Shown in pieces: positions 22,848 to 36,328 of a stretch of DNA of 64,000 bases. The stretch's first letter is position 1, and every line of letters starts with the position of its first letter. The notes under the pieces were generated by a model. The model searched no databases, was not told the origin of the DNA, and worked only from the letters and a program-made list of their open reading frames with translations. Position numbers and translations under genes: made by a program. Source of the DNA: a virus; the IMG/VR virus record IMGVR_UViG_3300021962_000046, positions 42,621-106,620 of that record; one strand, given 5' to 3'.

Positions 22848-24188
22848 TCAAATAAAGTCACTTAAAATAAAAATATTGGAGTTTTCTGGTAAGTAGTTCT
22901 TTTTGATGTTTTCGATAGTCATTTTATTGGCATCAACAAACCAATACCAATTTTCAGGTTTTTTAGGAGATACAAGATCTCCATAACCATCAGTCATGAC
23001 AAAAACGGTTGGGTATTTTTTGTAATTTGTTTTTTCTATGTCATCGTTTATTATTTTAAAACTTGTACCACCACCTCCATACAATTGTCTTGATTTAATT
23101 GTTGTGCCATAAATTTCTGTGTCAAAGCAAAATAAATTAACATTGAATCGTCTTTTAGGCAGCGATTCAGCAGCAGCAAAAAAACGATCTGCCAAGTGAC
23201 TGCAAGATGCACTAGTGTCCAAATAAAAATAGACATCTATTTTTGTTTCATTTAAAGACCAATTTTCAACATCCATTTCGCTAGGTAAAAACATATTTTC
23301 ACAATCAATTAAAGTAAATCTTCTATGCTTTCTTGCCCATTGATCGTAAGGTGAATCATCACAACTCATTTGTTTGGATGTCCATTTTTTTATTACTGTT
23401 TCCCATTTTTTCTTTTGTTTGATGATTGTTTTTTGTGGGAAAATAAGCTTTCCACCAGCACCCTTGCCAGCTTGCAATCCATTTTCAATTTCTTTTTGAT
23501 GTTTTTTGTATAGTTTTTCTATACCTTCTTTTTCTTCATCTGTCAGCAAGTCATTCAATTCATTTACAGCGTTAGAAAAATCATTGGATTCATCCATGTG
23601 TGAATGGTCATCGAGAGTTTTAGGCGTACTTTTTTCTGAGGATTTACCGTCAGAACCTTCACCATTTTTGTTTTTTTGAGATTCATTTTTTGCTTGTCTA
23701 AGAATTAAATTATAATAATATTCAGCTGTTTGATCGTTACTAATTGGAAATCCATTTACCTTTTGTTCTTTGAAAACAGTATCGACCCAACAAAGTTCTT
23801 CTGCACCTTCTATATTATCTCTTATGAAGCCAAATTGATTTATCAACATGTGATTTACAGTAACATCCATAGCCATGTTAGAGATAAGTTTGTTTTCGCA
23901 ATCTTTAAATCTAAATCCATGATTGAATAGAACATGGAGAGCTTCATGGCTTATGACAAATAATTTTTTATAATCGCTGCACTTTTGCCAAAAAACAGGA
24001 TTGAAATAAAAGCCAACATAATTTCCAGTTTTATTAAAAATAACACAGGCTGTTTCGATGGAATTAGTGAAAAAAGGCTTGCCTAACTGCCATATCTTAT
24101 AAAAAAGAGAATGATGATCTTCTAGTAAAAAGCAAATGGATTCCCATTCCTTTTTACCCATAGCTTCAGCAGACTTAAAAGCTTCCAT
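22848..24188 (-). CDS. VWA-like metallopeptidase-domain protein
   Basis: A 446-residue protein of the DUF2201-like type. A zinc metallopeptidase motif HEALH is at residues 81-85, with further His at 90. A hydrophilic middle (about 170-260) is Asn/Lys/Ser-rich. The C-terminal von Willebrand A-like domain has DTSAS near residue 330 (DxSxS metal site), GGGGTSF and MTDG. The stop of the MoxR-type ATPase gene overlaps its start, making a two-gene unit. Such ATPase/VWA pairs act in bacteria as chaperone-like or metal-insertion systems. Its role in the phage is unknown. Confidence 0.8.
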   Translation of the reverse strand: MEAFKSAEAMGKKEWESICFLLEDHHSLFYKIWQLGKPFFTNSIETACVIFNKTGNYVGFYFNPVFWQKCSDYKKLFVISHEALHVLFNHGFRFKDCENKLISNMAMDVTVNHMLINQFGFIRDNIEGAEELCWVDTVFKEQKVNGFPISNDQTAEYYYNLILRQAKNESQKNKNGEGSDGKSSEKSTPKTLDDHSHMDESNDFSNAVNELNDLLTDEEKEGIEKLYKKHQKEIENGLQAGKGAGGKLIFPQKTIIKQKKKWETVIKKWTSKQMSCDDSPYDQWARKHRRFTLIDCENMFLPSEMDVENWSLNETKIDVYFYLDTSASCSHLADRFFAAAESLPKRRFNVNLFCFDTEIYGTTIKSRQLYGGGGTSFKIINDDIEKTNYKKYPTVFVMTDGYGDLVSPKKPENWYWFVDANKMTIENIKKNYLPENSNIFILSDFI

Positions 24189-25660
24189 CAGACTCTCACT
24201 ATCTTTTTATAGATTTCTGACTGTGCTAATTTTGCAAACATGTTTGAATACTCAGAAGACCTCTTTATCAATTCTTCTATGATTGATTTTGATCCTTGTG
24301 GTTTGTTTCTGTTTAAAACATGTAGGCAATAATTAATCATGCCTGCAAGTTTATCGAATTTTGGCTGTACAATAGTGCTTGCCCAAGAGCAATTTACAAA
24401 CATACAGACAATATCCAGAGCTAATGATGCATCTTTGTCACTCATGTCGTTAGAAAACACAGATTTCAATTTGTTAAAAACTGACTCTCTTTTGGAAGGA
24501 TTATTGTATTCAGTAGCACTCATAGATGAATGCAATGTTTTGATAGTGTTGCTGGTGTCTAGATCAACTGAACTCTTGTTGTGAAAAAAGGATTGTTCTG
24601 CTTTTTCCAAGGGTATTTCATTTATATTCTCAACGCTGGAACTATTCTCATTAAATGCTCTTCTTATCTTCTTAACCAACTTGGTATTAGAACCAGCAGA
24701 TAAAATGTCACGCATGATTTGTTTAAACTCATCATTCTCTTTATGTTTGTTAAATACAAATCTTGATATCTTGTCGTTTTCTGACATCAAAGTCACAAGC
24801 TTTTCTTTTGGAATTAATGGTACAAAAAATTCCATAATATCACTTTTTTCAATAATATATTTTATTGAAGAATTGTAGTTATTATCATTTGCTATGAATA
24901 ATTTAGCAGAAGCCACATCACCACTCTTCATTAAATCACGCAGTTTAATATCAATTGGCCCGTTTCTCAAAGCCATCATCAGCTTTGAGATGTTTGAAGA
25001 TTTGGGAAGAATATCTTCTGGATGACCACCAGAGGCGTATTCCTCAAGAGCATATTCCAATCTTCTGGGGGAAACTTTATCTTTCTCTTCATCTGGCAAG
25101 CCATCCCACCATTCGATGCCAGCCATGCCGATTTCTGGTTCAAATCTTTTGACAAACCATTCTCTGTTTGGCTTGTATGGAATCTGTGCGTGAATATGAA
25201 AACGATCCTTTTGAGCAGGGTCGAGCTTTTCTACATCATAAGTATCATCGTCATCTGGATTGATTGCTGCCCATATGACTTTTAAATTAGGAAAAACCAA
25301 ACCATTAATTGATTTAAATTGCAGCAGTTCCATAACTGCATTTCTTACTTTTTTGGGACTTCTGTTAAATTCGTCGAAAAATATTGCTTCTACTTTTCCA
25401 GATGCAAGGCTCTTAGGTCTTACCAATTCCAAAAATGTGTTGCCATTTTCATCTCTTGTTTCTTTGGGAACACCTATTAAATCAACCCACGGATCAAGTG
25501 TTGAAGTGCTGAAATACAAGAATGTTTTGTTTAATTCCAAACCATTTCTTTCAAAACAAGACTTGATTTGAGCAGTCTTACCAACACCAGCTTTACCTAT
25601 AAACAGAACATTTCTTCTGTTCTTGAACCATTTGTCCAATTTATCATCATTGATTTGCAT
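24188..25660 (-). CDS. MoxR-type AAA+ ATPase
   Basis: A 490-residue protein. Walker A GKAGVGKT is at residues 22-29, Walker B AIFFDEFNR with the Asn-Arg that follows in MoxR proteins, a sensor segment VIWAAINPDDDD, and an arginine-finger-like AQKDRFH. The second half (270-490) is helical and specific to this protein. It is joined to the VWA metallopeptidase gene by a stop/start overlap, matching the known MoxR-VWA gene pairs of bacteria, where the ATPase remodels targets chosen by the VWA partner. The 85-base region upstream probably holds the promoter. Confidence 0.85.
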   Translation of the reverse strand: MQINDDKLDKWFKNRRNVLFIGKAGVGKTAQIKSCFERNGLELNKTFLYFSTSTLDPWVDLIGVPKETRDENGNTFLELVRPKSLASGKVEAIFFDEFNRSPKKVRNAVMELLQFKSINGLVFPNLKVIWAAINPDDDDTYDVEKLDPAQKDRFHIHAQIPYKPNREWFVKRFEPEIGMAGIEWWDGLPDEEKDKVSPRRLEYALEEYASGGHPEDILPKSSNISKLMMALRNGPIDIKLRDLMKSGDVASAKLFIANDNNYNSSIKYIIEKSDIMEFFVPLIPKEKLVTLMSENDKISRFVFNKHKENDEFKQIMRDILSAGSNTKLVKKIRRAFNENSSSVENINEIPLEKAEQSFFHNKSSVDLDTSNTIKTLHSSMSATEYNNPSKRESVFNKLKSVFSNDMSDKDASLALDIVCMFVNCSWASTIVQPKFDKLAGMINYCLHVLNRNKPQGSKSIIEELIKRSSEYSNMFAKLAQSEIYKKIVRV

Positions 25661-25745: not shown

Positions 25746-26492
25746 TCAAGCGAAGATTTGCAGTTGGTTTCTTTCCGAGATGTAAATATTATCGCCTAGA
25801 TCCAATTCAAACCAGACATCATAAATTCCAACTTCTAGTTCATTTGTATCAAGCATGTAATAACCAAATTTCATTTCACGAAGTTCAACGGTTGCCTTAT
25901 CAACGATTAGTCTCAAGTCTTCTTCTGGGGGCAAACATTTTCCACATCTTTGTTCAATAGAAATTTTCAAATTACCAACGATAGCAAGGTTCTCGTAGTA
26001 TCTTTGAAGATCAGTTCCCTTGGGAACATTTGGGGTTACTTCAATAATTAAATAACGCTTGCTGCCTTTTCTGAGTCTGGATGGACGAAAAACAAAATTA
26101 AAGTCATATACCACAGGAATCGGTGTGGCATACCAAAGATCTGGATAAAGCTTGAACAAATTGGCAATTTGGCTTGTTTCTTGATAAACATCTTCAAAAT
26201 CACAATACCAAATATCTGTATAGTTTCCTATAGTGAAAACATTTTCTTCAGTCTGCAAATCAACATAGTATTTACCAGTACCATCTTGTACTATTTGTGT
26301 TGGTGAAATTGTAGTTATCAGAGTTCTTCCATTAACATCAGTTGGCTTGGCACCATCATTTAATTTATAAATTTCAATCTTCTGAATTGAATTTACATTG
26401 GCAAAATTATTGCTGTTGTAAAAGAAAAGTCGTAGTCTAACAATGTCACCAACTACTGGATTTTGATATCTTTCTTTTAATACAGCTGCCAT
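25746..26492 (-). CDS. Probable virion structural protein, unknown
   Basis: A 248-residue protein, not recognised. It is beta-rich with many Tyr, Val, Ile and aromatic residues, and its layout suggests two or three small beta domains (about 1-100, 110-180, 185-248). No signal peptide. It lies four bases after the gp51-like frame and next to the gp26-type gene, so a baseplate or tail part is the likeliest role. A pair of Cys (RCGKCLPPEED) sits near residue 180. Confidence 0.6.
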   Translation of the reverse strand: MAAVLKERYQNPVVGDIVRLRLFFYNSNNFANVNSIQKIEIYKLNDGAKPTDVNGRTLITTISPTQIVQDGTGKYYVDLQTEENVFTIGNYTDIWYCDFEDVYQETSQIANLFKLYPDLWYATPIPVVYDFNFVFRPSRLRKGSKRYLIIEVTPNVPKGTDLQRYYENLAIVGNLKISIEQRCGKCLPPEEDLRLIVDKATVELREMKFGYYMLDTNELEVGIYDVWFELDLGDNIYISERNQLQIFA

Positions 26493-26495
26493 TTT

Positions 26496-26726
26496 TTACC
26501 TTCTTTTTGCTGATGCCTTGCGTTTTTCTTTTTCCATTTCTTCGTGTTCTTTGTTCTTCTGCTCAATGAACCTTTCAATAAGAAACTTTCTTTCATGTAT
26601 TTGCAGGCGCATGCAATCAAAGCGATTCATATGCATATGATACTGGAAAAAGAAAATCTCTTCAGCCAAGTTTTTCCACAGAATTAAACTTGGCTCTTCT
26701 CCTTCCTTTTGCGCCGTGGGAAGAAA
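26496..26726 (-). CDS. 51: gp51-like extension reached by -1 frameshift (or separate small ORF)
   Basis: A frame open without stops from the slippery site at 26726-26732 to the stop at 26496, in the -1 frame relative to the gp26-type gene. It encodes 76 residues, with an Ala/Glu/Pro-rich start overlapping the end of that gene, then a helical, aromatic part (AEEIFFFQYHMHMNRFDC, IHERKFLIERFIEQK) and a basic Lys/Glu tail. No ATG lies near the overlap; the first is at 26636 with a poor ribosome site (46 residues). This is the arrangement of tail-assembly chaperone pairs such as lambda G/GT and of gp26/gp51-type genes. Expression as a fusion is inferred. Confidence 0.65.
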   Translation of the reverse strand, partial: FLPTAQKEGEEPSLILWKNLAEEIFFFQYHMHMNRFDCMRLQIHERKFLIERFIEQKNKEHEEMEKEKRKASAKRR

Positions 26727-27736
26727 AAATTTGCTTCAAGAGGAAGTTCGATTTCAAATTCTTCACTAGACATAGGAGAAACAATTGTAACCTTGGTATC
26801 GACACCAAAAGGAGGATCATTAACAACGCTTCTAATGTAAGAAAGGTCTTGGATTGGAAGACTTCTAAGAATGGTTTGAATTTCATTTTTTGCTGTGATG
26901 TTACCAATTGATTCAACTAACTGACTGGTTCTGAAAATCAAAGTGTCATCACTTGCTTGATCTCCGAATTGACGAAGTCTTCTTTCACGATATTCTTGAA
27001 GTTCAGTTTCATCCCTGCCCTTGGACAATCTGTAGGTAAATTTCAGATTGCTTTTTGGCAAAACATCCGTCATGTCACTTAATGAAAAATCATCTGGGCA
27101 AACATCCACAGGAAGACTGTTCAAGTCAATAGTGGTGCTGAACTTACGATCATTTTCTGGATCTTTTACTTCTACTTCATAATCTGGGCCATAAGAAATA
27201 CCACGAAGATAAATCAAAAGATAAGTTCTATCAGCAGACAATAAGTTTTCTGGCTTGAAGTTTTCTTTTATACATCTACTAAAAATCATATTGATTGCTT
27301 GACCCTTCTTAACAAATCTTGGTGTAGCCAAAATTTGTTCCTCTTCACCAGTCATAGGTCTAATGTGAATTTTTCCATCAGCAGGGCCGTCAGACCCATC
27401 ATAAAACTTACCCATAGAAGGAAGCGTGATTTCCTCGTAAACCTCCGAATGACCTTTAAGGCTATCGAGAATAGATTGCAATTCAGATGAGTTGGAATTG
27501 CCGGGATTCATTTTGTTGAAAGGTAAATTAGGATTGCCCATCATAGGATTGGGCATGGGAGGAGGAGGTGCAAAACCGGGAGGAGCTTGTGGTTGCACAG
27601 GAGGCATGCCACCATTTTGTTGTTGAAGCTTTTCGAGGAATTCTTTTGGAACATTTCCTGAAAACTTGATGGGTGTTTCGCCCCCCGCTCCGGGGATGCC
27701 TTCAGGTCTTTGTGGCTTAAAAACATCGTCGCTCAT
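26684..27736 (-). CDS. 26: gp26-type baseplate hub / tail-assembly protein
   Basis: A 350-residue protein. Residues 1-90 are Pro/Gly/Asn-rich linker (MPPVQPQAPPGFAPPPP). The folded part (about 95-330) has FYDGSDGPADGKIHIRPMTGEEEQIL, followed by CIKENFKPENLLSADRTYLLIYLRGISYGPDYEV, which matches the gp26-like hub protein family of T4-like phages as I remember it. The end is basic (PRRKRKEKSQ). Near its 3' end is the heptamer A-AAT-TTT in the right phase for a -1 shift into the gp51-like frame. GGGAG precedes the ATG. Confidence 0.8.
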   Translation of the reverse strand: MSDDVFKPQRPEGIPGAGGETPIKFSGNVPKEFLEKLQQQNGGMPPVQPQAPPGFAPPPPMPNPMMGNPNLPFNKMNPGNSNSSELQSILDSLKGHSEVYEEITLPSMGKFYDGSDGPADGKIHIRPMTGEEEQILATPRFVKKGQAINMIFSRCIKENFKPENLLSADRTYLLIYLRGISYGPDYEVEVKDPENDRKFSTTIDLNSLPVDVCPDDFSLSDMTDVLPKSNLKFTYRLSKGRDETELQEYRERRLRQFGDQASDDTLIFRTSQLVESIGNITAKNEIQTILRSLPIQDLSYIRSVVNDPPFGVDTKVTIVSPMSSEEFEIELPLEANFFFPRRKRKEKSQV

Positions 27737-31189: not shown

Positions 31190-31429
31190 ATGAAAAAGAA
31201 TTTTTTAGAAATATTAGAAAAGCAAGAAATAATTGAATTGCTTGAAAAAAGAGGTTTTGCAAAAGCAATAGATGCATTGCTGACAAATGAAAACAAGGTC
31301 TACACTAAAAAAGGTAGGCTTAATAAAAGTGGTGCATGTAGGGTTCTTGGATTGAAGCCCAAAGAACTAGATGAATTCTTGGCAAAATGCAGAGAAGCTA
31401 TATCAGCACATGAATTCTTGGAAAATTAA
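31190..31429 (+). CDS. Small helix-turn-helix-like protein next to gp55
   Basis: A 79-residue basic protein. Residues 38-75 (YTKKGRLNKSGACRVLGLKPKELDEFL) have the look of a helix-turn-helix with a Gly at the turn, related in style to sigma region 4 or small phage regulators. It follows gp55 after 37 bases, so a job in late transcription (for example a gp33-like co-activator) is possible. T4 gp33 is longer (112) and no direct similarity was recognised. Confidence 0.55.
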   Translation: MKKNFLEILEKQEIIELLEKRGFAKAIDALLTNENKVYTKKGRLNKSGACRVLGLKPKELDEFLAKCREAISAHEFLEN

Positions 31430-31941
31430 CAGTTGCTTTCTTGTATCAAATAAGCTCTGTCGAATCTAAGAGTTAGATCTATTTTCATTATGTCGTTTGT
31501 TCCCATGTCTACTTCGCCAAAATTGACTTCCTGTGGCCAAGCATTCTCATAAGTCCAACTTTCCAAAGCAACACCACACCCATCATACATGGTTATTGTT
31601 GCATTCTTTTTAAATCCACCAGTAGAAGACCTATAAATTCCTGTTTTAGGATTATAAAACTGCAAAATCCAATTGTAAACAGGATTTAAAATAGGTTCAT
31701 TTTTGTATGTATCGTCATACAAAGTGACAGACATGGATTTGTAATCGATTTTACCCGGAAAATATATTTGTTCACTCAGATGTTGAACATCCAATTCTTT
31801 AAAACTGTAGCTAGGCCTTGCAGCTTTCTGTGGTAATTTTGCCCTTACACCAGTACCAACAATACCATCTATGAAAAAAAGAAATCTAAATGTACTTTTG
31901 TAGGTTGCATCAAAATTTGGAAAACTCATGTTTATTGGCAT
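31426..31941 (-). CDS. 19: Tail tube protein, gp19-like (copy 1)
   Basis: Inner tube of the contractile tail. The 171-residue protein has the gp19 pattern: RFLFFIDGI start strand, a central ISVTLYDDT-like segment (MSVTLYDDTYKNE), VYNWILQFYNPKTG, TMYDGCG, and the closing strand IDLTLRFDRAY. It is a clear paralog of the 32035 gene (MPIxM start, YNWI, LYDGCG, WPQxVNFG shared). A TATAAATA box and a hairpin separate it from that copy, so it can be expressed independently. One copy may build the tube and the other a tip or end protein. Confidence 0.85.
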   Translation of the reverse strand: MPINMSFPNFDATYKSTFRFLFFIDGIVGTGVRAKLPQKAARPSYSFKELDVQHLSEQIYFPGKIDYKSMSVTLYDDTYKNEPILNPVYNWILQFYNPKTGIYRSSTGGFKKNATITMYDGCGVALESWTYENAWPQEVNFGEVDMGTNDIMKIDLTLRFDRAYLIQESNC

Positions 31942-32034: not shown

Positions 32035-32640
32035 TTAGGCCAATGCGCCGATAGAAACACCATCGCATTGTCTGTTGCAGTAAGGTGTAACCTTCGCACC
32101 GCAAACTGGATTGGCTTCCCATCTTGCGAACTGATAACGCAAGGTAACTTCGATGGTGGATTCCTCATTGTTGGTGTAATCCAAGTCACCAAAGTTAACG
32201 CTTTGTGGCCAGCATTGGATTAAATACCAGTTTTCCAACCAATCACCGCAACCATCATACAATGTAAGAACACCAGTAGCTGTGTAGTCAATAGTTCTAG
32301 TATTCATCGTTGGGTTGTTACGAGAATTTGGTGTGAAGAAGTTGTAAACACTAGCAATCCAGTTGTAAACATTTAGTGTTGTGTCTGTTCTTGTTGGTGT
32401 TACATCAATCCAAGTAACAGTAATTGTTTCAAATGTGGCCTTGCCGGGAATAAACATTTTACCATGTAAAAAGTTTAGTTCTGTTTCTTCGATAGTCACA
32501 TTTGGTCTTGCGGCTACTTTGACGAAATCAGGTGGAATTACAGAACCGCCAGCACCGATGACGCTGAATGTCCACCTAAACTTCCTCTTAAAGCCGATAT
32601 CGGGATTACCAAGTCTCCCTATACCCATTTGTATTGGCAT
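32035..32640 (-). CDS. 19: Tail tube protein, gp19-like (copy 2)
   Basis: A 201-residue gp19-family protein, longer than its neighbour through a C-terminal Cys-rich segment (PVCGAKVTPYCNRQCDG). Shared features: RFTWSV-like start strand (FRWTFSVIG), VYNWIASVYNF, LYDGCGDWLENW, CWPQSVNFGDLDY and the closing strand EVTLRYQFARW. It follows the sheath gene directly (31 bases), the T4 order 18-19. GGAG lies upstream of the ATG. The Cys tail is unusual for a tube protein and may bind metal or form disulfides after release. Confidence 0.88.
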   Translation of the reverse strand: MPIQMGIGRLGNPDIGFKRKFRWTFSVIGAGGSVIPPDFVKVAARPNVTIEETELNFLHGKMFIPGKATFETITVTWIDVTPTRTDTTLNVYNWIASVYNFFTPNSRNNPTMNTRTIDYTATGVLTLYDGCGDWLENWYLIQCWPQSVNFGDLDYTNNEESTIEVTLRYQFARWEANPVCGAKVTPYCNRQCDGVSIGALA

Positions 32641-32670: not shown

Positions 32671-35046
32671 TTAAGCAAGTACCTCGGTATTTTCATTGAA
32701 TGTTCCTGTACGATGCAAGGAGAATTCAATGAAGATGAATTCGGCTGCACGGACTGGTTGGACACCAATTCTGGCTCTCATTTCATTTCTGTCAATCACA
32801 TCTGGTGGATTCAAGTCTTCATCGCACTTGATGATGTAGTCATAAATTCCTTGATTTATCTTAACTGGATCAATAATTCTTTGAGCCAAAGTTACAAATC
32901 TTTCTCTTAGTTGAGCGGTGTGTGGCTCAAACAATAGAGATTGGGACACATTCTTGACAGCCTTTTCAATATAGAACAACATTCTTCTAACATTGATTCT
33001 GTCTAGAGCGGTTGGTCTTCTCTGCAAAGTCTTCTGACCCCAAATTACAAAGTTGGAAGAACCAGCATAAGAAATAATTGGATTGATGGCATTGCCGTTG
33101 CCATACATCTGGTCTTTTTCCAAAGCTGTTGGTTTGTCTTGTACACCAAGAACACCGGGGCAAACACCACGGGTCAAACCAGCTGGAGCAAACCAAGGGA
33201 AAGCAATGCTGTCAGAACGAGCGATTGTGGCAAGAACAGAACCACTAGGTGGAGCAAAGACATTTAAGCCGTTGTAACCATCTCTAATGGCAACCCAAGG
33301 CCAGTAAAGAGCAGCGAAATCGCTGTCTAGCTTCCTGTTGTTTAGTGGGTGAACACCATTCTGCCATTGAATGATTTCTTTTGGTGAGAAATTAGATGGT
33401 GGATCAATAATAGCCAAGCAATCTTGGCGATACTGTTCGCAAACAATAATCATATTTTCGATGACTCTTGTAGCAGAACGACCGGGAGCAGCCAACAAGT
33501 CAATGTTTAACTGGTCTGGTTCGCTGAATGCATATAGTCCTGTATAAGCTACTGGACTACCGATGATTAAATCATCTTGTGCATCTGGATCTTCTGGCAA
33601 ACCATCGGAGCCACCAGCAAGAAGAACAGGAGCGTCTAGTGGTGCAGGAGGTGCTGAAACATTAGTATTATCAACGGCTCTAATCCAATCGCTTACCAAG
33701 TTAATATAAGTTACAAAATAGTATCTTGAAGCTGGATCTTTAGTTAGATCACCCCATTGTTCGACAGGATTGCCTTCGTTGTATACTAAAATATTGAAAG
33801 TACCACCAACATTTTCAGTAACTTGAATTGATGTCACATTACCTTCAATGCCAGCACTATCTGCCGTTATTGTCATGCTTATGTCACCAGCTGTGTTAGC
33901 TGTGCCGGTGACTACACCAAGGCTGGCAGTTGTGCCACTTGATGATCCTTTAGGGGAATCACCAGTAACAAAATTGTAAGTACTGTTATTCGTTAATCCT
34001 AGAGCAATTACACCTGTGCTTGCTTTCTTGACTGAAAGTCTCGCACCTTTACCAGCATCAATTGTCTTAATGTCAACAAAGTCACCGTTTGCAACAAACT
34101 CGAAACCACCAACTGGAATGGCATTGTTTAGAGCAGTTATAAGGGCTGCTGTGTTAACCTGTGCTGCTTTCAAGCCATCCAAATCCAGAGTTTGAACTAT
34201 TCCATCGATAGATGTGTTTTCTGTACCATCTACAACAACTTGTAGATTCAAAGGACCGCTAAAAGCTGTAAAGTCCCAGTCACCAGCAGCGTGGTAAGCA
34301 TCAACAGGATAGTAATCCTTATCACCTGACAATAAGGCTGGTGTCATTCCTGTACCAAGACCAACAACTGAGTTTGGTCCCATTAGATTGTTGTTTACAG
34401 ATACATATTCAATAGTTGACTGAGTGCCATAAGCCCAAACAGATTCAACAGCAAGATATTCATCAGAAGCTGTGTCAATGTAAACTGAGAATTTAATACC
34501 ATCAACAGAAAAATCTAGTTGTTCGTTTAATTCTGCAACAAGTTCAGAGGCCGATTTGGTAACTGAAGTAGCTGGAGATACTGGGCCTAAAACAGTCAAT
34601 GTTTTTGAAGCTTCAACACCATTTAACTTCCATTTGAAGAACTGGTCTTCAGAAAATGTAAATGGTCCAGCTTCATCACCAATTGCTTTAATCAAACCAC
34701 CGGCAGCCAATAAGTCAACACTAGCAACTTGTGCTGCATCTGGACTTAGTTGGTCAACATCACCAACACGAACAACATAGACTGAGTTACTTGTAATCAA
34801 AGCCTGTTGTGCAGCATAGATTAGGTAAGGATCAGTTGTTGCTGGATGAGGATTGCCAAACTTGAGGGCAAGCTCAGGAAGTGTGGAAACAAGGGTGGGT
34901 GTATTGAATGGTCCCTTGGAAGCAAATCCAACTAGTCCTATGTTTTGCAAAGTTGGAGTAGTAGCTGTATATGTTAAGTCCCTTTCAGTTATTCTGACTG
35001 AGGGGCTTATTGTGTTGGAAGGTGGGAAACCTTTTAATATTGCCAT
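32671..35046 (-). CDS. 18: Contractile tail sheath protein, gp18-like
   Basis: Forms the contractile sheath around the tail tube. The 791-residue protein starts with ERDLTY and GLVGFASKGPFNTPTLV, and has a C-terminal sheath domain with YGNGNAINPIISYAGSSNFVIWGQKTL, RINVRRMLFYIEKAV, and AEFIFIEFSLHRTGTF, the best-conserved part of T4-like sheaths. A variable central insert (about 110-480) contains Gly/Ser/Thr/Val-rich beta domains that may be exposed on the virion. T4 gp18 is 659 residues, so this one carries extra surface domains. CAGGAG precedes the ATG. Confidence 0.93.
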   Translation of the reverse strand: MAILKGFPPSNTISPSVRITERDLTYTATTPTLQNIGLVGFASKGPFNTPTLVSTLPELALKFGNPHPATTDPYLIYAAQQALITSNSVYVVRVGDVDQLSPDAAQVASVDLLAAGGLIKAIGDEAGPFTFSEDQFFKWKLNGVEASKTLTVLGPVSPATSVTKSASELVAELNEQLDFSVDGIKFSVYIDTASDEYLAVESVWAYGTQSTIEYVSVNNNLMGPNSVVGLGTGMTPALLSGDKDYYPVDAYHAAGDWDFTAFSGPLNLQVVVDGTENTSIDGIVQTLDLDGLKAAQVNTAALITALNNAIPVGGFEFVANGDFVDIKTIDAGKGARLSVKKASTGVIALGLTNNSTYNFVTGDSPKGSSSGTTASLGVVTGTANTAGDISMTITADSAGIEGNVTSIQVTENVGGTFNILVYNEGNPVEQWGDLTKDPASRYYFVTYINLVSDWIRAVDNTNVSAPPAPLDAPVLLAGGSDGLPEDPDAQDDLIIGSPVAYTGLYAFSEPDQLNIDLLAAPGRSATRVIENMIIVCEQYRQDCLAIIDPPSNFSPKEIIQWQNGVHPLNNRKLDSDFAALYWPWVAIRDGYNGLNVFAPPSGSVLATIARSDSIAFPWFAPAGLTRGVCPGVLGVQDKPTALEKDQMYGNGNAINPIISYAGSSNFVIWGQKTLQRRPTALDRINVRRMLFYIEKAVKNVSQSLLFEPHTAQLRERFVTLAQRIIDPVKINQGIYDYIIKCDEDLNPPDVIDRNEMRARIGVQPVRAAEFIFIEFSLHRTGTFNENTEVLA

Positions 35047-35063: not shown

Positions 35064-35270
35064 TTAAATATTAGTTACTTCCCTAGTCGATATAAGACCA
35101 GATCGTTCTGCTTGCTCTATATATATTGTTACTCTCTCATCTTCTAAAAGAAATTTATTTTTTTTATTTCCAATAGCTGGAAGATTTAGTGTTGTGAATG
35201 TTTTTGGTGCGAGTTTAGACTTGATTACAAGCTGTACTGGATATTTTTGTAAATTTGTAATCTCAATCAT
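35064..35270 (-). CDS. Small protein between gp15 and sheath genes
   Basis: A 68-residue, beta-strand-like protein (MIEITNLQKYPVQLVIKS start). Not recognised. Its ATG overlaps the gp15 stop, with AGAGGAA upstream, and the sheath gene follows after 17 bases. Co-location suggests a minor tail component or assembly factor. Confidence 0.6.
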   Translation of the reverse strand: MIEITNLQKYPVQLVIKSKLAPKTFTTLNLPAIGNKKNKFLLEDERVTIYIEQAERSGLISTREVTNI

Positions 35271-36328
35271 TTTAGTTCCTCTACCGCTGTTTCCAATCTG
35301 GAAAGTACTTCGCTTACTTTCAGGTCATCAACATCATTCACAATTTCTGTCTTGGTTTTCAGGACAGCCTTGCTTCTGACTATGGGTTGTGCAACATATG
35401 ATTCGGCAGTCATTCCAAATTGAAATTTGATAACCCTTAATGCAGCATCACCGGGTTCTACTTCCAAATTGTTTGCTACAGAATCAAGTCGGACTGCAAC
35501 TTCCCACAATGACCCTCTCACCTTTATATATGCAAGAGTGCTAAATTTAGTGACAACTTGCTCAACTATTTGGTTCATGTCCTCTAAATTCATAGTCCAT
35601 GCATAAAGTGTGTATCCAACATCAACTGGAATGCCTCTGGCAACACCAAAAACCGTGTCTCTTTCGTATTTTTCATTTGAAGTGAAAGATGGCTTGCCAT
35701 TTTTTAAATCTCTAATGTAGTGCAAAGCCTTGTGATAGGTGTATCTTGCCGTGTTTATCGAATATTCAGTACTACTAATGGCAAGCATCGGAAGTCTTAT
35801 TCTGTCAACAACAAGTGTCTCATCTTTTCTCACATTATCTTGTACAACAGCTGCCACCGCTCTCTCTTGAGTGGCCCAAATTATAGGAACTTGATGTGCT
35901 TTTCCATCTTCATCAATAATAACAATATCACGAAATAAATCCATTACAGCTTCATCGGTTGAGCGTAATGATTTTGAATAACGATAAATTGTGTTTCTGT
36001 TTGGATTTTGCAAATCATTTACAATGCTGCCTTTTTGCATTGGATCGCAATTGTTGGCACTACCCAAATTTATTTTTTTTGTCAGTATGTCATCCATCCA
36101 ACTTGTCGCAGCATCAACATGCATATTGTTCTGATTGTCCGGTGGTTGCTCACACATTCCGGGTGGTGGATCAATATTCTCAGACCTGCCCAAAATACTT
36201 TGATCTGGACATGTGTTTAAGTTTTTTTCGTAACCGTTTGGATTTGGGCCTATTGGAAGCATATAAGTATAATACTCTACTGGAGTTAATTTTTGTGGAA
36301 AAACATGAAATAAGCTACAGAAGTACAT
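35267..36328 (-). CDS. 15: gp15-like tail sheath stabiliser/terminator
   Basis: Caps the head-proximal end of the tail. The 353-residue protein has VPIIWATQERAVAAVVQD (gp15: VPITYASKEHFM), RIRLPMLAIS, and VGYTLYAWTMNLEDMNQIVEQVVTKFST, which follows the T4 gp15 stretch around DDMFQIVEQILPYF. The start MYFCSLFHVFP recalls the MFGYFY-type start of gp15. Residues 25-110 form an Asn/Pro-rich insert. It precedes the small 35064 gene and the sheath, the T4 region 15-18. Its 5' end overlaps that of the plus-strand 36295 gene by 34 bases. An ATG at 36262 is an alternative start. Confidence 0.75.
   Translation of the reverse strand: MYFCSLFHVFPQKLTPVEYYTYMLPIGPNPNGYEKNLNTCPDQSILGRSENIDPPPGMCEQPPDNQNNMHVDAATSWMDDILTKKINLGSANNCDPMQKGSIVNDLQNPNRNTIYRYSKSLRSTDEAVMDLFRDIVIIDEDGKAHQVPIIWATQERAVAAVVQDNVRKDETLVVDRIRLPMLAISSTEYSINTARYTYHKALHYIRDLKNGKPSFTSNEKYERDTVFGVARGIPVDVGYTLYAWTMNLEDMNQIVEQVVTKFSTLAYIKVRGSLWEVAVRLDSVANNLEVEPGDAALRVIKFQFGMTAESYVAQPIVRSKAVLKTKTEIVNDVDDLKVSEVLSRLETAVEELK

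What the first reader, a model, noticed from the sequence alone, without database searches (positions are those of the whole stretch)
26496..26735. Probable programmed -1 frameshift (A-AAT-TTT) fusing gp26-type and gp51-like frames
The heptamer AAATTTT at 26726-26732 is in exact X-XXY-YYZ phase with the gp26-type gene (codons GCA AAT TTT). The -1 frame is open from there for 76 codons past the zero-frame stop and encodes a helical gp51/GT-like tail. No good start codon exists for a separate protein. Known: tail assembly chaperones of many phages use this device. A purine-rich AGGAAGGAG, which can act as an internal Shine-Dalgarno stimulator, lies downstream in the overlap rather than 10-14 bases upstream, so the stimulator is unclear.
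Basis: partly seen in the sequence, partly recalled or inferred. Interest (0 to 1): 0.75.

Follow-up and report, generated by a model that had tools for sequence, protein, structure and literature searches.

The report
Frameshifted tail-assembly chaperone of T4-type phage
A gene of a large tailed phage almost certainly makes two proteins, a short tail-assembly chaperone and a longer form made when some ribosomes slip back one base at the run TTTTTTC; this is a known phage device, here traced through a wide family of T4-related phages.

Summary
The 350-aa gene at 26684-27736(-) is a T4 gp26-type protein (PF12322). A -1 frame overlaps its last 52 bases, runs 62 codons past its stop, and encodes a helical gp51-like tail. 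Shifting gives a 413-aa fusion. In 63 distinct relatives the -1 frame has 0 stops in 4575 codons, against 291 and 257 in the other frames. Both give the same fusion. No upstream Shine-Dalgarno or conserved RNA structure was found, and the downstream AGGAAGGAG is probably not a stimulator. The same heptamer lies at the gp26/gp51 junction in 76 of 77 cyanophage-type loci. In two other branches a homologous tail lies in the +1 (equal to -2) frame. In T4, gp51 is an in-frame gp26+tail fusion. gp26/gp51 as T4-like tail-assembly chaperones is published (Vladimirov 2022, known here only through papers that cite it). So this is a well-supported new member of a known kind. Expression and chaperone function are inferred, not shown.

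The parts
26684..27736 (-). Zero-frame ORF, 350 aa, T4 gp26-type protein (short product, TAC-N / G-like)
   Evidence: PF12322 E=3e-13, above the gathering score; phrog_150 baseplate hub E=1e-17; translation
26723..26729 (-). Slippery heptamer T_TTT_TTC, the most likely -1 shift site
   Evidence: in phase; T_TTT_TTC in 57 of 61 and C_TTT_TTC in 4 of 61 distinct sites; same heptamer in 76 of 77 cyanophage-type loci
26726..26732 (-).
   Evidence: 40 of 61 distinct sites
26496..26735 (-). -1 frame ORF (stop to stop, stop included), gp51-like helical extension
   Evidence: no stop in 4575 codons over 63 relatives; helices 15-33, 38-42 and 46-78 of 79 aa, mean pLDDT 86.5
26499..26723 (-). Part of the -1 frame translated after the shift (75 codons); fusion of 413 aa in all
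26684..26686 (-). Zero-frame stop codon TAA
26667..26669 (-). TTG, the only possible start in the -1 frame before the conserved helix; judged not used
   Evidence: 26 of 63 relatives have no ATG/GTG/TTG in that stretch
26699..26707 (-). AGGAAGGAG, purine-rich stretch encoding part of the RRKKK patch; probably not a frameshift stimulator
   Evidence: position; no conserved structure of note with it
25746..26492 (-). Next gene, 248 aa, unknown; starts 3 bases after the -1 frame's stop codon
31426..31941 (-). Tail tube protein (context)
   Evidence: phrog_4542 E=8e-25
32035..32640 (-). Second tail tube protein (context)
   Evidence: phrog_4542 E=2e-26
32671..35046 (-). Tail sheath protein (context)
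   Evidence: phrog_23 E=7.5e-74

Best explanation
The locus is a tail-assembly chaperone gene of the T4 gp26/gp51 kind. Most ribosomes read the zero frame and make the 350-aa short protein. A minority slip back one base at U_UUU_UUC (26723-26729): the tRNA-Phe pair on UUU-UUC re-pairs on UUU-UUU. They then read 75 codons of the -1 frame and make a 413-aa protein with a C-terminal helical gp51 domain. By analogy with lambda gpG/gpGT, the shared domain would hold the tape measure or hub proteins, and the extension on the rarer long form would recruit the tail tube subunit. Shown by computation: gene identity, frames, conservation of the site and of the -1 frame, and homology of the tail across branches. 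Inferred: that the shift happens, its efficiency, and the chaperone function.
For: gp26 family match. All relatives examined in this branch keep the -1 frame, mostly at 50-65% protein identity to the window. T_TTT_TTC is kept at high divergence although Phe codons elsewhere in these genes are 59% TTT and 41% TTC; TTT-TTC stands at the site in all distinct loci. No stops in the -1 frame against 291 and 257. Third-position variability in the -1 frame after the stop is 1.47 bits, against 0.94 and 0.67 for positions 1 and 2, a coding signature. 26 of 63 relatives have no start codon for a separate protein. The same heptamer at the same junction is found in 76 of 77 cyanophage-type loci, 16 of which have no start codon near it, and in Aeromonas phage 65. 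T4 gp51 is an in-frame version of the same fusion. In SP-15 and Flavobacterium phage immuto the pair lies directly between tail tube and tape measure genes; in LIS04 the annotated gp26 does.
Against: No expression data. No upstream Shine-Dalgarno enrichment (best match 3.21 against 3.19 in controls) and no conserved downstream structure of note, so a stimulator is not identified. Four of 61 distinct sites have C_UUU_UUC, a weaker site in the P position. No tape measure gene was identified beside the pair in this window. No solved structure matches the model. The direct profile match of this branch's tail to cyanophage or T4 gp51 is not significant; the link is indirect.
Confidence: 0.9

Rival explanations
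1. Two separate proteins: the gp51-like protein is translated on its own from an internal or re-initiation start (TTG at 26669 in the window) by ribosomes that finish the gp26 frame.
For: 52 of 77 cyanophage-type loci have ATG as the first possible start close to the gp26 stop codon, mostly five bases after the start of that codon, so re-initiation could add to the product there; some relatives of the window have ATG at the start of the conserved helix.
Against: 26 of 63 close relatives have no ATG/GTG/TTG between the site and the conserved helix; 16 of 77 cyanophage-type loci have none near the junction. The -1 frame is conserved right up to the slip site, including in the overlap. Synonymous freedom at the Phe codons is lost.
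Confidence: 0.05
2. Transcriptional slippage on the T run inserts one base, giving the same fusion from an edited mRNA.
For: The site is a run of six T.
Against: Six T, and only five in the C_TTT_TTC relatives, is short for polymerase slippage in bacteria (own knowledge). The strict phase and the C after the T run fit tandem tRNA slippage.
Confidence: 0.04
3. The overlap is a broken gene or a sequencing error in a single original fusion gene.
For: In T4 the fusion exists in one frame.
Against: The same frame relation occurs in 63 distinct loci from many metagenomes.
Confidence: 0.01

Closest known systems
T4-like tail-assembly chaperones gp26/gp51 (Vladimirov, Gautam and Davidson 2022, Virology 566:9; not held, known through PMC10274946 and PMC12846349)
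   Same: Same protein families: short gp26-type protein and long form with a gp51 tail. Poly-T slip sites in T4-like short-chaperone genes are cited as known.
   Different: T4 itself carries two genes, short gp26 and an in-frame long gp51; here one gene makes both by frameshift.
Lambda gpG/gpGT and other long-tailed phage chaperones
   Different: No sequence or fold match to a solved gpG-type protein was found; different slip site from lambda's (own knowledge).
Vandenendeviridae chaperone locus, phage Adele (PMC12846349)
   Same: A -1 frame open through the whole locus and an invariant poly-T motif (GTTTTT).
   Different: Different phage family; homology to this gene not tested.
gp26-type genes of phages Mel-JY01, immuto, SP-15 and LIS04
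   Same: Homologous short protein and homologous tail (profile match 97%, E about 3e-11).
   Different: The tail is in the +1 (or -2) frame: 66 of 75 distinct Mel-JY01-type loci, with TTT TTT TGG/TAC CCT in 68 of 74.

Membership tests
Phage tail-assembly chaperone pair made by programmed frameshift (G/GT type) | Second ORF overlaps the end of the first in another frame and is conserved | tested here: met
Phage tail-assembly chaperone pair made by programmed frameshift (G/GT type) | Conserved slip site near the end of the first ORF | tested here: met
Phage tail-assembly chaperone pair made by programmed frameshift (G/GT type) | Lies between tail tube and tape measure genes | tested here: inconclusive
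   Window: tube and sheath genes 4-8 kb upstream on the same strand, with other genes between; no tape measure identified. In SP-15, LIS04 and immuto the gene has exactly this position.
Phage tail-assembly chaperone pair made by programmed frameshift (G/GT type) | Both products made, short in excess, absent from the virion, binding tape measure and tube proteins | not testable with these tools
   needs expression and binding data
T4_baseplate / gp26 family (PF12322, phrog_150) | Profile match above the curated score | tested here: met
   50.3 bits against 24.5; phrog_150 E=1e-17
gp51 hub assembly catalyst (phrog_634) | Profile match of the C-terminal tail | tested here: inconclusive
   No direct match. 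Linked indirectly: window tail to +1-class tails 97%, +1-class to cyanophage gp51 90.5%, cyanophage gp51 to T4 gp51 93.4%.
Programmed -1 ribosomal frameshift site | In-phase X_XXY_YYZ heptamer | tested here: met
   T_TTT_TTC, and overlapping A_AAT_TTT
Programmed -1 ribosomal frameshift site | Stimulator: upstream Shine-Dalgarno-like sequence or downstream RNA structure (usual, not required) | tested here: inconclusive
   No upstream enrichment; mean fold z -0.5 (60 nt) and -1.5 (110 nt); one weak consensus helix only. None found, but absence is not proof.

The most novel reading that the evidence does not exclude
One homologous chaperone family keeps the same two-form protein output while changing how it is made: -1 slippage at U_UUU_UUC (this branch, cyanophages, Aeromonas phage 65), +1 or -2 shifting at UUU_UUU_UGG/UAC_CCU (Mel-JY01 and immuto branch) or after the FF motif (SP-15 branch), and gene duplication with an in-frame fusion in T4. 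The T4 half is published; whether the +1/-2 branches and the huge-phage-like branch are already described I could not check.
Probability: 0.6. Interest if true: 0.5.

Novelty: new member of a known kind. Interest (0 to 1): 0.38.

Why it matters
The review PMC5009743 names T4 as the exception to frameshifted tail chaperones. The data here place T4 inside a family that mostly does frameshift and show that one deeply conserved heptamer, U_UUU_UUC, marks the junction across far-apart branches. It also corrects gene calls: the gp51-like part is usually unannotated or called as a separate short gene. The switch between -1 and +1/-2 shifting within one family is a natural system for studying how shift direction changes.

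Tried and rejected
AGGAAGGAG as a stimulator: downstream, coding for RRKKK, only a weak consensus helix. The window RNA folds into a hairpin there (-28.8 kcal/mol, z -1.6), but relatives fold differently. Pfam Tma16 match of the tail (E=3e-5): judged a chance match of charged helices. Fold searches of the gp26 model (PDB) and of the tail (viral library) gave nothing with E<=0.001; weak tail matches include three annotated tail-assembly chaperones (E 1.3-7), not evidence. Searching with a 12-sequence gp26 alignment failed, too diverse.

Full report
What is there. The minus-strand ORF 26684-27736 encodes 350 aa and matches PF12322 (T4_baseplate) at 50.3 bits against a cut-off of 24.5, and phrog_150 'baseplate hub' at E=1e-17. 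Near its end the codons read GAA GCA AAT TTT TTC TTC CCA CGG CGC. The -1 frame is open from 26735 to its stop at 26496-26498. The fusion is 413 aa. Either heptamer gives the same protein...EANFFLPTAQKEG.... The window is part of a 106,620-base virus record. The closest named record is the uncultured 595-kb phage LR756511.1.

More than chance. The heptamers alone are not evidence: AAATTTT occurs 73 times and TTTTTTC 54 times in the window, near expectation. The comparison is evidence. Scans of IMG/VR gave about 80 relatives. All of them have the tail in the -1 frame (one contig ends inside it). Among 61 distinct sites, 57 have T_TTT_TTC and 4 have C_TTT_TTC; A_AAT_TTT is in 40. Elsewhere in these genes Phe is TTT 59% of the time, yet the two Phe codons at the site read TTT TTC in every distinct site. 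Downstream of the site, over 63 distinct loci, the -1 frame has 0 stops in 4575 codons, the zero frame 291 and the +1 frame 257. After the zero-frame stop, codon-position variability in the -1 frame is 0.94, 0.67 and 1.47 bits, the pattern of coding sequence; in the overlap the third position is held down (0.73), as expected where two frames are used. These sequences are related, so the counts are not independent events, but divergence is mostly 35-50% at the protein level.

Not a separate gene. In 26 of 63 loci there is no ATG, GTG or TTG between the slip site and the conserved helix; the window has only a TTG at 26667-26669.

Stimulators. Shine-Dalgarno-like matches upstream are no better than in control stretches (3.21 against 3.19). 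Downstream folding is only mildly stronger than shuffles (mean z -0.54 for 60 nt, -1.47 for 110 nt). The alignment fold finds one weak eight-pair helix between the RKKK purines and the EIFFF pyrimidines, -2.95 kcal/mol. The shift may work without a strong stimulator.

The wider family. In cyanophage-type loci, 76 of 77 distinct gp26 genes carry in-phase T_TTT_TTC next to the stop codon, with gp51 in the -1 frame; 16 of the 77 have no start codon near the junction. Aeromonas phage 65 has T_TTT_TTC, phage C48C1 T_TTT_TTT and Rhizobium phage N34 T_TTT_TTG at the same place. Because many cyanophages also have an ATG five bases after the start of the gp26 stop codon, re-initiation may add to the output there.

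T4 itself. gp26 and gp51 are separate genes on opposite strands. Both match PF12322 over its full length (8.8e-64 and 3.9e-52) and each other at E=2e-6. gp51 also covers phrog_150 to its C-terminal end and matches phrog_634, the family of cyanophage gp51. So T4 gp51 is the in-frame long form and gp26 the short form. PMC10274946, citing Vladimirov 2022, says that some T4-like phages carry one short gene and one longer fusion gene. PMC12846349 cites the same paper for poly-T slip sites in T4-like short-chaperone genes. The paper is not held, so its exact scope is unknown to me. In T4, gp51 is needed for assembly but absent from the particle, and both proteins are listed as hub assembly chaperones (PMC3004832).

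Other shift directions. In Mel-JY01-type loci the tail is in the +1 (or -2) frame in 66 of 75, with TTT TTT TGG CCT in 48 and TTT TTT TAC CCT in 20 of 74. Stops after the site number 5 in the +1 frame against 405 and 179 in the others, out of 3700 codons. SP-15-type loci are +1 in 6 of 6. The tails are homologous to the window's -1 tail: profile probability 97.3% and 97.2%, E about 3e-11. Window tail to cyanophage or T4 gp51 is not significant directly, but the +1 tails link to cyanophage tails (90.5%) and cyanophage tails to T4 gp51 (93.4%).

Context and function. Tail sheath (32671-35046), two tail tube genes (31426-31941, 32035-32640) and a sheath stabilizer (35267-36328) lie on the same strand upstream. 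In SP-15 and immuto the order is sheath, tube, gp26, gp51-like frame, tape measure, the position of lambda G and T (own knowledge). AlphaFold2 models: gp26 core confident (pLDDT mostly 85-97 from residue 81), tail a long helical hairpin. No solved structure matches. Chaperone function therefore rests on family, position and the two-form logic, not on fold or experiment.

Conclusion. A programmed -1 frameshift in a T4-type tail-assembly chaperone gene is very likely (0.9). It is a new member of a known kind. The elements that may be new are the exact conserved heptamer in this branch, its spread across branches and the change of shift direction within the family.

Noticed in passing
L203-L282, L009, L014 (Mel-JY01-type gp26 genes): gp51-like tail in the +1 (or -2) frame with near-invariant TTT TTT TGG CCT or TTT TTT TAC CCT; +1 and -2 cannot be told apart from sequence.
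   Followed up: partly
L275, gp26 end: A member of the +1 class with TTC TTC TGG CCT whose homologous tail is in the -1 frame instead: a possible recent switch of shift direction.
   Followed up: no
L159, gp26 end: The single cyanophage-type gp26 of 77 without the slip site or a gp51 frame behind it.
   Followed up: no
L101:3803-4429 (T4 gp26): Weak match of T4 gp26 to phrog_1140, baseplate hub distal subunit (E=9e-4): T4 gp28 may be a further distant relative.
   Followed up: no
window 31426-31941 and 32035-32640 (-): Two neighbouring tail tube proteins of the same family (phrog_4542), suggesting a duplicated tube gene.
   Followed up: no
window 22848-25660 (-): AAA ATPase and a DUF2201 putative metallopeptidase as a gene pair just downstream of the tail chaperone locus.
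   Followed up: no
window 26496-26735 (-): The -1 tail scores above the Pfam cut-off for Tma16 (24.3 against 22.7 bits), probably a chance match of charged helices that could mislead annotation.
   Followed up: partly
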